From Xestospongia bergquistia (Eukaryota > Porifera > Demospongiae > Haplosclerida > Petrosiidae): DNA of 64,000 nt. A program made the translations under genes and the position numbers. The stretch is from positions 1,364,001 through 1,428,000 of the forward strand of contig OZ014422.1 of the NCBI GenBank assembly GCA_963965975.1. Direction: 5' to 3'. The notes beneath the pieces are model-generated. The model was not told the origin of the DNA and did not search any database. It saw only the letters and a program-made list of their open reading frames with translations. Shown piece by piece: positions 12,624 to 52,165 of this stretch (its first letter is position 1; each line of letters begins with the position of its first letter).

Positions 12624-14052
12624 TTACTCTATGATTTTCAAGACTTTACCTATTGCAATAGTTTTACCTATCAACATAAAATGAACAACATATTATATAC
12701 TAGAACACATGACAACATTAACTTTAATTGTGCTACTATGTGTCAGCAATAGCAACAGACAGTCAGTACAATAATCATTACAATAATACCTAAAAGGCAC
12801 TAGTATTTAGCAGTTTGTACTGTACACAGTGCCTAACAGTGGGTGGTGACTTGCTCCATGATTGACAAAGGGACACTTAATAAAAGTACATAATATGTCT
12901 CCCTAATGTCAATGATTGCTGTTGTTGTTACATCTATTGTACACAATTGGACTATACCTTCATCTCGTAATGTGAATCTTGCCATAGCAGGAAACTCTTT
13001 GAAGATTTCCATACAGATTATCCTCGAAGTTTGGAAACGAGCTATTGCTGTGTGATCTTGTTTAATGAATCTAGGAGAGAGACAGGGGAGGGGGGGGGGG
13101 AGGGGAGAAAGAGAGAGAGAGGGAGAGAGAGAGAGAGAGATCATTATCACAGGACAAGTTAATAAACGTACTTTGGTTTTTCTGGCAATTTTTTACCAGT
13201 TTTCTTGTCAATTTTAGCAAGTAATTGCTACACAAAGTAAACGGAATTAATAACAAACAGATATAACTAACTACACATGTACTAATATCATGTTAAAATA
13301 TGCTCTAACTCACAGCAATCTCTACTTCTTCTACTACACTATGTATATGAAGAACACAACTAAAACCAGCACATATAATAGACTTGTATTCCAATATTAC
13401 AACCTAACAACAAAATATATAAAGAACATTATAACATAACATGAAATACAACACTGATTAGTGATCATACACATGTAAACATATTAACAAACATATTGTT
13501 TACCTGTGCGTCAAAGACTCGTCCTACATGGCATGGACTATGAGGACTACACATTACAAAACCTGGTGATATATCCTATTAGCGTATAGAAGTGTTCAAG
13601 TGCTTAATAAATGATCAATGTATACCTCTTCCTCCACACCTTTGATTTTGAGTTTAATGTTATCACCTGAGTAAGCAGCTGATACTTCTTCTTCAACACG
13701 TATTACAGAAAGGACTTCTATCATACTCTAAATGGATCATGAATATGTCAATATGTCTCTCTGTCCACTCCTCCTGCATTTATTCATCTATTATCCAACT
13801 TACTCTATTAGGCATCATAAGAAACTGAGATCCTTTACAAACAGAACCTGACTCAATCTTGCCAATAATAACTGTTCCCATGTCCTACAATACATGATAT
13901 AATAATATTAGTACTGTCTATATAACATAACTACAGACCTTATATCTATCAGCAATAGGCATTCTAAATGGACCTTGATCTTCTCTTGTAATAGATGGCA
14001 AGTTGTCAAGATATGGAATAAAAGCAGGACCACTGGAACAGTGAACAGAAAT

Positions 14053-14086
<34 letters not shown>

Positions 14087-49449: not shown

Positions 49450-49484
<35 letters not shown>

Positions 49485-52165
49485 TCATACAATTATAAAT
49501 TGCTCAGCATACATTTTTCTTATCATTAACAGACTACACAGTAATCAAGAGCACAACTCTTAAAAAATTGCATGTATCCAATATTTATACACAACATTAA
49601 TTACACTACTGCATTTTCTCCACTTATGTAGCACCTGGTCTTTATTAATAGCACCTGCTATTATATGTACATTAATCAATGGTCCAGCAACATAAACAAC
49701 ACTCCTACTACCATGAACTCTCCTGACAGTAGTGACATTGTATTTACTGGTACTTCATAAATACTAGTAGTAATATCGTACTTACTGGTACTTCATAAAT
49801 ACTAAGAACATTTTCACCCTTTCTTGCAAAATAACGACCATCAAAACTCCACCTACAGATAATTGGAGAGAACAATGGATTTATTATTTTATACACCAGG
49901 AGCATATTAGCATGCTTTAAGGACAGAATATTCCTAACTATAGAGGTCAATAATGAGCCTATCTAATAGTAGCCCTAAAATGTTCTTAGATTGAATTTTA
50001 ATATCATTTTGTATTTGTAACATTTAACAACAACTACAACGCTAACAGATAAAGAGAAGATCTTGTTACCAGGGGTTCATACAGGAGGGGGGGGGGGGGG
50101 GGAGCCCCGGGATATCCCCCCCCCCCCCAAGAATTTTCCATACAACATTTTTATATTTTTATAATTATTTAAGTTAAAGTTCAATGCGCCTATTTTTTTG
50201 TTTGAAATATCCATTATTGCATTAAAGTCAACATCTTTTAATGGAGGTCCTTCTATTGCAACCTTCATTAAATGTTCAAGATTTGAATTAGACAGTCGAC
50301 TATGTAGACATGTAATATAATAAGTGATAATTTTCTAAAGAACGAATAATGAAATACAGCATGAATATATAGTACAATACTGCATGGAACATAAGAGGAA
50401 CATTGACCGAATCCCCCCCCCCCCAAAGTTCAAATCCTGTATGAAGTTATGAACCCCTGGTTACGATGTCAACATCTCAGTAAACCAGTACAAAATAAAT
50501 AGTAAAACACAGGATATCAATATGTGTACATGTCAACTTACTTAATGACTGGCCAATCTTCAGTTGGTAGTTTTGTAAATGTCCTTTTTGTTTTTCCCGT
50601 TTTAATATCCCAAATGATAATGTTTTGAGGATCTGAAGGGTTCTCTACTACATTACTGAGAGTAACTAAATATCTAATAATAAACAGTTATTAAAAGTTA
50701 TTAAAGGTTATTAGTTTCAGTGTTACCTTTCACATGGAGAGCAATCTGCTAGCTGTACCCCAGGATGAGTGAATCTTCCCAATCGTTTGAAGTCTTCAGT
50801 ACCCCACAGGGCAACACCTTGTGAATGAAAAGAGATGAGATAGGATCCTAATGGAGACCATTGGTGATATGTCTCTGTCCATCGCTGAATGAGAGAGAGA
50901 GATCATTAGATTTAGTAAATATTAATTTTAGCAATTCTTTGAGTCAAATTTTGTATTTTTGCAACTAAACCCAGTACAAGGGGAAGCTGTCACACCCCCT
51001 TGCACACACACACACACAACAGTGATAACAATGCTTACTTCTCTTTCAAGTACTACTCTGGGCTCTTGTGGAGTATTATAACACACTGCACTCTTCTCAA
51101 TGCGACCTCCATTAAAAATACCAACATACTGATCATGACAGTCAGGCTCGATCAACCAGGAGCGAAGATTGCCCTGATAAAATAAATAAATAAATTCTAT
51201 TTTATTAGTAACAATGAAAAACTCACAACTTCTTTAAATTCCACTTTTTGTGGTGGACTCCATTCTTCTTCAGGTAAATGTTCGTATCTATCAATGAACA
51301 AAATTTAGAATGTATCATGAAATGATTTTACAGTTGTGTCCAGATATGAGGTTAGTGTTAAATGTTACTACTGACTTTTCAAAATCTGACAACAAATTAA
51401 CTGCAAAAATATGTGACTTGTCAAGTTTATAGCCATCACAAGTACGAACAGCATTTCGAGCCTCCTCTGGTGTAGAATACTCAATAAAAAAGAACCTAAT
51501 AATTAATAAACCAACATAATAATTAATAAACCAACCTAATGGTTAATAAACCAACCTAATAGTTAATAAACCAACCTAATAGTTAATAAACCAATCTAAT
51601 AGTTAATAGTTAATAAACCAACCTAATAGTTAATAAACCAACCTAATGGTTAATAAACCTATAAACATCTGTCCATTTGTCAATATATCTACTCATTCAT
51701 CCATCCTTCCATTATAAAAAGGGTGTGGTCAATTGGTCATTGTTATACTATTTCAAACTACATTTAATACAGATATATTCCTGTTTTTTTATCTTACCCT
51801 TTAAATATCCCTTTATCATCAGTGGGGTAATATTCTGAGACAATGTTACCAAAACGTCCCAATACTTTCTTCAGTACAGTTTTCAGTTTGTCCATACGAT
51901 CAGGTCCTACTTTAGGAGCATGGTCAACAACAACCAATGTCTCCCTGCTCTTATCCACACATGGTCTATTTTTCAATACATCTCCAAGGAGATCTAGAGA
52001 TGTAATTGTTATTATAACTTTAATTATTTTATACTAAGTCAATAGTATATAATAAAATTATGTATATTATTAAAATTTATAAGTACCTTCATCGCTAATA
52101 TTATCTATATAATCATCTGGATCAGAGAATTCGTGATCAGACAGTAATTCTCTCTCTTCATCCAT
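46264..52165 (-). CDS. EIF3B: Translation initiation factor eIF3 subunit B
   Basis: Many exons from MDEERELLSDHEFSDPDDYI at 52165 to EKTEEING at 46264. The acidic N terminus is followed by an RRM (ETLVVVDHAPKVGPDR, IVSEYYPTDDKGIFKG/FFFIEYSTPEEARNAV), then a WD-like beta-propeller (RWTETYHQWSPLGSYLISFH, GVALWGTEDFKRLGRFTHPG, WSFDGRYFARKGENVLSIYE, DFAWSPHDHLISYWVPE, IDFSLEPNGNKFAIIHG, ANTLFWSPAGQFIVLAGL, ISWDPTGRYVVSSVS, FCQFLWRPRPPSLLSEEDI) and a charged helical C terminus (KGLLEKRRKQVDDFAAFRER). eIF3B is a scaffold of the eIF3 complex on the 40S subunit. Introns hold a hAT-like element (50070-50459), a 20-bp minisatellite abutting an acceptor (51496-51660) and a duplicated exon end (about 49744-49800). 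Confidence 0.95.
46930..47035. repeat. Short tandem duplication in an eIF3B intron
   Basis: TAATTTCTAATAACTTATCA plus GACATGTAGA occurs twice, about 70 bp apart (about 46938 and 47009). Another imperfect duplication (GTGCCCAGAAGACTT) lies at about 48644 and 48709 in a different intron. Confidence 0.8.
50065..50464 (-). mobile_element. Short hAT-type transposon remnant in an eIF3B intron
   Basis: Terminal inverted repeats beginning CAGGGGTTCATA (left end 50070, right end 50459) enclose 390 bp. Both ends are flanked by GTTAC (50065-50069 and 50460-50464), a likely 5-bp target-site duplication. Poly-G and poly-C runs (about 50085-50102, 50115-50128 and 50412-50424) lie just inside the ends. The interior, on the minus strand, keeps a reading frame LHSRLSNSNLEHLMKVAIEG continuing to about 50200. 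This is the signature of the hAT transposase C-terminal dimerisation domain. It is therefore an internally deleted hAT copy that kept its 3' coding end, in the same orientation as eIF3B. Confidence 0.75.
51496..51660. repeat. 20-bp minisatellite made of 3' splice-site-like units
   Basis: About eight units of CCTAATAGTTAATAAACCAA. On the eIF3B strand each unit reads TTTATTAACTATTAG/GTT, so each contains an acceptor-like AG. The last unit is the real acceptor of the FFFIEYSTPEEA exon (exon starts at 51495). Confidence 0.85.

What the first reader, a model, noticed from the sequence alone, without database searches (positions are those of the whole stretch)
12624..52165. Ancient animal synteny block: eRF3, HAPSTR1, USP7, PDPK1 with WIPI2, eIF3B and SANS
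From memory of the human map, USP7 and C16orf72/HAPSTR1 are near neighbours at 16p13.2. GSPT1 is at 16p13.13, PDPK1 at 16p13.3, ANKS4B on 16p, WIPI2 and EIF3B at 7p22, and USH1G, WIPI1 and SLC26A11 on 17q. Finding all their homologues within 64 kb of a sponge-like genome suggests a linkage group conserved since the first animals. The tightest part is USP7-HAPSTR1.
Basis: partly seen in the sequence, partly recalled or inferred. Interest (0 to 1): 0.75.

Follow-up and report, generated by a model that had tools for sequence, protein, structure and literature searches.

The report
Sponge piece of ancient animal chromosome
Seven nearby genes on a sponge chromosome have human relatives that sit on a few related human chromosome arms, an ordinary local view of the already known preservation of whole animal chromosomes, with one closer pair (USP7 and HAPSTR1) that may be worth a proper test.

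Summary
The genes are real: seven of the eight named orthologues hold (WIPI1/2, eRF3, HAPSTR1, SANS, USP7, PDPK1, eIF3B); 'SLC26A11' fails, since this SLC26 gene resembles prestin/SLC26A6 far more. The window lies on a 7-Mb contig (C12) of a demosponge-like genome. A marker test supports shared ancestral linkage: of six families whose human genes I recall on 16p/17q/22q, five fall on C12 (0.11-4.88 Mb) and one (COG7) does not; 4.8% each is expected. So this is chromosome-scale conserved linkage, already published for sponges (Kenny 2020; Schultz 2023), not a conserved 'block': genes of other recalled human origin are interspersed, and relative orientations differ from the recalled human map. 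USP7 and HAPSTR1, immediate neighbours in human (recalled), lie 5.6 kb apart here with one gene between. In Amphimedon both are listed on a contig of 182,009 bases. Granted shared linkage, at least one such pair among seven genes arises by chance in about 3-5% of simulated draws, so it is suggestive only. USP7 stabilises HAPSTR1 in human cells (PMC10921065), which makes the pair the one lead. No cnidarian, placozoan or bilaterian gene order could be examined with the tools; the human map is from memory.

The parts
8204..11569 (-). WIPI1/WIPI2-type PROPPIN (recalled human 17q24 / 7p22.1); just outside the stated coordinates; left end approximate
   Evidence: Pfam PROPPIN 1.7e-48; WIPI2 198 bits versus Atg18 86 and WIPI3 76; exons and start codon
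   Evidence: eRF3a 435 bits versus HBS1L 227; Pfam GTP_EFTU; start codon at 16592
17437..18434 (+). HAPSTR1 (C16orf72/TAPR1; recalled human 16p13.2); starts 845 bases from the eRF3 start codon, head to head
   Evidence: Pfam TAPR1-like 3.2e-37; only place in the genome that rings; 64% identical to Amphimedon 'C16orf72 homolog'
22062..23210 (+). SANS-type ankyrin-SAM protein, one counterpart of USH1G and ANKS4B, C-terminal PDZ ligand DTDL
   Evidence: USH1G 64 and ANKS4B 59 bits, other hits at most 17; the four homologues fetched end in S/T-D-L or S-D-L
24080..31912 (-). USP7 (recalled human 16p13.2), with the catalytic Cys motif at 29425-29463 and the His motif at 27637-27669; left end approximate
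   Evidence: USP7 671 bits versus USP47 66; MATH, UCH, USP7_ICP0_bdg, USP7_C2; motif places
33361..37883 (+). PDPK1 (kinase plus PH domain; recalled human 16p13.3); starts 1449 bases from the USP7 start codon, head to head; right end is a lower bound
   Evidence: PDPK1 374 bits versus PKA 179; Pkinase and PH_3; last PH piece at 37845-37883
39563..45517 (-). Tandem flavin-containing monooxygenase genes (two long open frames and, by reading, a broken third copy); not part of the linkage claim
   Evidence: Pfam FMO-like 1.5e-39; open frames
46821..52165 (-). eIF3B (recalled human 7p22.3)
   Evidence: eIF3B 460 bits; exons; an upstream ATG at 52237 also exists
55127..59090 (-). SLC26 anion transporter of the prestin/SLC26A6 side, not SLC26A11; locally duplicated
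   Evidence: Pfam Sulfate_transp 1.4e-63; prestin 243, SLC26A6 220, sodium-independent sulfate transporter 86 bits

Best explanation
The window is a local slice of a sponge chromosome (contig C12) that carries, at least in part, the descendant of one ancestral animal linkage group, whose vertebrate descendants are segments of human 16p13, 7p22, 17q24-25 and 22q12-13 (recalled) after the early vertebrate genome duplications. Genes stay together because exchanges between chromosomes are rarely fixed, while inversions within a chromosome keep reshuffling order and strand. Membership in one linkage group is shown here by the marker test; the mechanism is taken from the literature. The closeness of USP7 and HAPSTR1 is most likely what shuffling within a shared chromosome sometimes leaves or recreates.
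For: Seven of eight gene identities hold. Five of six marker families fall on C12: NPL4 at 0.40 Mb, RPL3 at 4.88 Mb, RPTOR at 0.108 Mb, TELO2 at 3.09 Mb, RRN3 at 0.51 Mb; C12 is 6,995,158 of 146,460,797 bases, 4.8%, so five or more of six has probability 1.4e-6. The control family ribosomal L4 has places on C14 and C3, none on C12. CCZ1 and CYBC1, recalled at 7p22.1 and 17q25.3, lie in the flanks. Published sponge genomes show the same chromosome-scale linkage with shuffled order (passages of PMC7385117; abstract and passages of PMC10232365).
Against: COG7 (recalled 16p12.2) is on C11. Five of seven assignable flank genes have other recalled human origins, so C12 is not one group alone. All human positions are recalled. 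Only one control family was answered and which of its two places is the cytosolic gene was not settled. The window's seven group genes (7 of 7 assigned) are more concentrated than the flank genes (2 of 7), which plain mixing does not predict, though the window was chosen for that feature.
Confidence: 0.85

Rival explanations
1. [quoted passage not shown]
For: In human cells USP7 interacts with HAPSTR1, promotes its stability and is its second DepMap co-essentiality correlate (PMC10921065, passages). The spacing meets the rule of at most two intervening genes used for animal microsynteny (PMC5429095, passages).
Against: Among seven linked genes at least one human-adjacent pair arises by chance in 3-5% of simulations, and about 0.9-4 such close pairs are expected on the chromosome. 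The pair is tail to tail here and head to head in the recalled human map, so no shared promoter arrangement is kept. A second sponge does not test the sponge-vertebrate step.
Confidence: 0.12
2. Chance: the human locations scatter over several arms, so the first reader pattern-matched a set of unrelated genes.
Against: Five of six separately chosen marker families fall on the same contig (against 73); probability 1.4e-6 at the 4.8% rate.
Confidence: 0.03

Closest known systems
Ancestral linkage groups of bilaterians, cnidarians and sponges (Schultz et al. 2023, PMC10232365, abstract and passages seen; Simakov et al. 2022, not held, recalled)
   Same: Orthologues stay on one chromosome across sponges, cnidarians and bilaterians regardless of gene order.
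   Different: Here only about a dozen genes and six markers were placed; which named group C12 carries was not determined.
Macrosynteny of Ephydatia muelleri with Trichoplax, Nematostella and amphioxus (Kenny et al. 2020, PMC7385117, passages seen)
   Same: Same chromosome-scale linkage with lost colinearity in a demosponge.
   Different: A different assembly and chromosome; this window adds no principle.
Animal microsyntenic gene pairs (80 reported in Amphimedon by Irimia 2012, 60 confirmed by Gaiti et al. 2017, PMC5429095, passages seen)
   Same: USP7-HAPSTR1 meets the distance rule of at most two intervening genes.
   Different: Whether this pair is on those lists could not be checked; regulatory elements were not examined.
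PDI-RhoGDI microsynteny (PMC5722932, passages seen)
   Same: A conserved neighbouring pair whose products interact functionally; by recalled location two of its three human copies lie at 16p13.3 and 17q25.3.
   Different: That pair is reported absent from Amphimedon; USP7-HAPSTR1 is close here and listed on one contig in Amphimedon.

Membership tests
Ancestral animal linkage group (macrosynteny) | Independent orthologues of the same group are concentrated on one chromosome | tested here: met
   5 of 6 marker families on C12, 4.8% expected each; group membership by recalled human position
Ancestral animal linkage group (macrosynteny) | Same linkage seen in cnidarians and invertebrate bilaterians | not testable with these tools
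   No eukaryote genome collection; only the own genome could be searched
Ancestral animal linkage group (macrosynteny) | Window genes are orthologues, not paralogues | tested here: met
   Seven of eight by domain and score ranking; SLC26A11 fails; no gene trees were built
Conserved colinear block | Gene order and relative orientation kept | tested here: not met
   With SANS set aside, eRF3-HAPSTR1-USP7-PDPK1 is the recalled human 16p order reversed (a 1 in 12 coincidence), but each gene has the same strand as in the recalled human map, so all relative orientations flip (coordinates; human map recalled)
Animal microsyntenic pair (USP7-HAPSTR1) | At most two intervening genes in a sponge | tested here: met
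   Only SANS was found between them
Animal microsyntenic pair (USP7-HAPSTR1) | Closeness beyond what shared linkage gives by chance | tested here: inconclusive
   3-5% in a simulation with assumed gene numbers
Animal microsyntenic pair (USP7-HAPSTR1) | Kept in several lineages | tested here: inconclusive
   Amphimedon only, by equal listed contig length (the USP7 list shows 120 of 3084)
Genomic regulatory block | Shared enhancers in a bystander gene's introns | not tested
   No chromatin data

The most novel reading that the evidence does not exclude
USP7 and HAPSTR1, a deubiquitinase and the stress-response protein it stabilises, have been kept near each other since before sponges and other animals split, making gene proximity a record of a regulatory partnership as old as animals.
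Probability: 0.12. Interest if true: 0.6.

Novelty: new member of a known kind. Interest (0 to 1): 0.33.

Why it matters
It shows on one more sponge chromosome that animal chromosomes keep much of their gene content over more than half a billion years while local order is lost. Its one testable extra is the USP7-HAPSTR1 pair: if closeness recurs across phyla it would tie an ancient gene arrangement to a functional partnership known from human cells, as was argued for PDI and RhoGDI.

Tried and rejected
SLC26A11 was rejected on score ranking. The whole SANS protein was swamped by ankyrin proteins, many of them designed, so its SAM end alone was searched. Identifying the species: Corticium candelabrum (185.49 Mb, 22 chromosomes) does not fit, nor does any of the ten assemblies listed of eleven found (abstracts in the listing only); species left open. 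A sample of C12 (six 10-kb stretches) gave few assignable genes: DNAJC11 by Pfam and a G-patch protein that I read as GPANK1, both recalled outside the group; septin, Ras, Sec23-like, formin-type, caspase-like and sponge-specific pieces were left unassigned. Literature searches for the pair in a synteny context: (HAPSTR1+USP7+synteny, 0 papers; microsynten+USP7, 0 papers; C16orf72+synten, 2 papers, unrelated by title and abstract start; C16orf72+USP7+conserved, 5 papers) gave functional papers, of which I searched two by words. Searches were used for framework papers. Rows dropped before the flank count of 2 of 7: myosin heavy chain (human location ambiguous), an NFYC-like piece (no Pfam match), a thioredoxin-like protein (family not specific; some PDI genes are recalled in the group), chitin synthases, a glycosidase-like protein and sponge-specific or repetitive genes (no human counterpart assigned). 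The sulfatase was read as GNS (out of group); if it were SGSH, recalled at 17q25.3, the count would be 3 of 7. Structure prediction, trees and viral-contig scans were not used.

Full report
What is in the window. I built gene models with a small splice-aware gene finder trained on long open frames of this genome and read exons by eye. The order, left to right, is WIPI (-), eRF3 (-), HAPSTR1 (+), SANS (+), USP7 (-), PDPK1 (+), tandem flavin monooxygenases (-), eIF3B (-), an EF-hand protein by reading (-), an SLC26 transporter (-) and a second EF-hand copy (-) (coordinates); further pieces at the left end (0.6-7.6 kb) were not assigned. The eighth, SLC26A11, fails: of 19 chains listed the sodium-independent sulfate transporter is last at 86 bits while prestin has 243. 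The HAPSTR1 family and the USP7-specific domain each ring at one place in the genome, this window; the genome search works exon by exon and the USP7 domain rings weakly, so a diverged second copy could be missed.

Where the window lies. It looks like a demosponge: HAPSTR1 is 64% and USP7 54% identical to Amphimedon queenslandica, the best hits that carry an organism's name. The species was not identified.

Is the linkage more than chance? I recalled genes of human 16p, 17q25 and 22q13 whose Pfam families are usually single-copy and asked where these families fall. RRN3 and NPL4 were requested first, in one batch; the list of six was written down after the NPL4 answer and before the others. NPL4, RPL3, RPTOR, TELO2 and RRN3 fall on C12 at 0.40, 4.88, 0.108, 3.09 and 0.51 Mb. 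COG7 falls on C11. One control family, ribosomal L4 (RPL4 recalled at 15q22), has places on C14 and C3 and none on C12; I did not settle which is the cytosolic gene. A second control did not complete. The shared linkage is therefore well supported, and because the markers spread over almost 5 Mb it is chromosome-scale.

Is it a block? In the 100 kb on each side I could assign seven genes to a human location by recall. CCZ1 (Pfam Intu_longin domains, named by my reading) and CYBC1 (Pfam Cybc1_Eros) belong to the same human regions. ACTR8 (Pfam Actin, named by my reading), CDC23 (ANAPC8), URB1 (NopRA1), a GNS-like sulfatase (Sulfatase and SGSH_C, named by my reading) and RALBP1 (RhoGAP, named by my reading) do not (models). 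Against seven of seven in the window this is a local concentration (probability 0.0105 for all seven), but the window was selected for it. Order and strand are not conserved. Reading from right to left, PDPK1, USP7, HAPSTR1, eRF3 follow the recalled human 16p order PDPK1, USP7, HAPSTR1, GSPT1 (a 1 in 12 coincidence by my arithmetic), with SANS inserted although ANKS4B lies elsewhere; but each gene has the same strand as in the recalled human map, so every relative orientation flips. In particular USP7 and HAPSTR1 are head to head in human (recalled) and tail to tail here.

The tight pair. HAPSTR1 ends at 18,434 and USP7 ends at about 24,080, with SANS between. I simulated seven genes drawn at random from a linkage group of 200-600 genes scattered over 900-1240 human positions: at least one human-adjacent pair appears in 3.0-5.3% of draws, and 0.94-4.16 pairs within three steps are expected on the chromosome. 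The gene numbers are assumptions. The pair alone is therefore weak evidence for anything beyond shared linkage. Two things keep it alive. First, the protein search lists Amphimedon HAPSTR1 and USP7 both with a longest contig of 182,009 bases (the latter shows 120 of 3084 proteins); I infer it is the same contig. HAPSTR1 and SANS homologues also share listed contig lengths 10,428 and 4,241, which suggests that they are neighbours in other sponges; that too is inference. Second, a study in human cells and mice reports that USP7 interacts with HAPSTR1, promotes its stability and is its second DepMap correlate (PMC10921065, abstract and passages). A word search of that paper for neighbor, adjacent, 16p13, locus, synten and evolution found nothing on the gene neighbourhood.

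Known framework. Ephydatia muelleri shares chromosome-scale gene content with Trichoplax, Nematostella and amphioxus; the paper speaks of some local gene order but describes its example regions as without colinearity (PMC7385117, passages). Sponges, cnidarians and bilaterians share ancestral linkage groups (PMC10232365, abstract and passages), and vertebrate chromosomes derive from chordate linkage groups by duplication and fusion (PMC7269912, passages). Microsynteny is more limited: 80 pairs were reported in Amphimedon and 60 of them confirmed (PMC5429095, passages), and local order is poorly kept in sea anemones (PMC10719294, passages). A precedent for a conserved pair of functional partners, PDI and RhoGDI, is reported as not found in sponges (Amphimedon) (PMC5722932, passages). 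The present finding fits this framework as one more instance.

Limits. No other eukaryote genome could be searched, no gene trees were built, all human positions are recalled, and the group membership of most C12 genes is unknown. Which named ancestral linkage group this is remains open.

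Noticed in passing
window 16592-17437 and 31912-33361: Two head-to-head gene pairs with short gaps between start codons (eRF3/HAPSTR1 845 bases, USP7/PDPK1 1449 bases), possible shared promoters.
   Followed up: no
window 22062-23210: A sponge SANS protein ending in DTDL where human USH1G ends in DTEL (alignment); the four SANS homologues fetched end in DTDL, DTDL, STDL and DSDL. The PDZ-ligand role is recalled.
   Followed up: partly
window 39.5-64 kb and right flank to about window coordinate 98 kb (L019-L022): Local segmental duplications by reading: FMO, EF-hand, SLC26 and RALBP1 C-terminal pieces and the first exons of eIF3B recur (second eIF3B start at window coordinate about 71.5-72.6 kb).
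   Followed up: partly
G000:C11:6720119-6722962: COG7, recalled at human 16p12.2, lies on another contig, so 16p12 may belong to a different group or the gene moved.
   Followed up: no
right flank, window coordinates about 141-163 kb (L026-L028): Two gene copies that I read as chitin synthases; the tail of one has SAM domains. An LTR retrotransposon, by reading, lies between the copies.
   Followed up: no
left flank, window coordinates about -87.2 to -62.6 kb (L010-L012): An ACTR8-like gene and a partial second copy, with CCZ1 modelled on the other strand in the region of the first copy.
   Followed up: no
G000:C14:5833047-5833619 and G000:C3:501265-502064: Two ribosomal L4 genes, one a single uninterrupted frame.
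   Followed up: no
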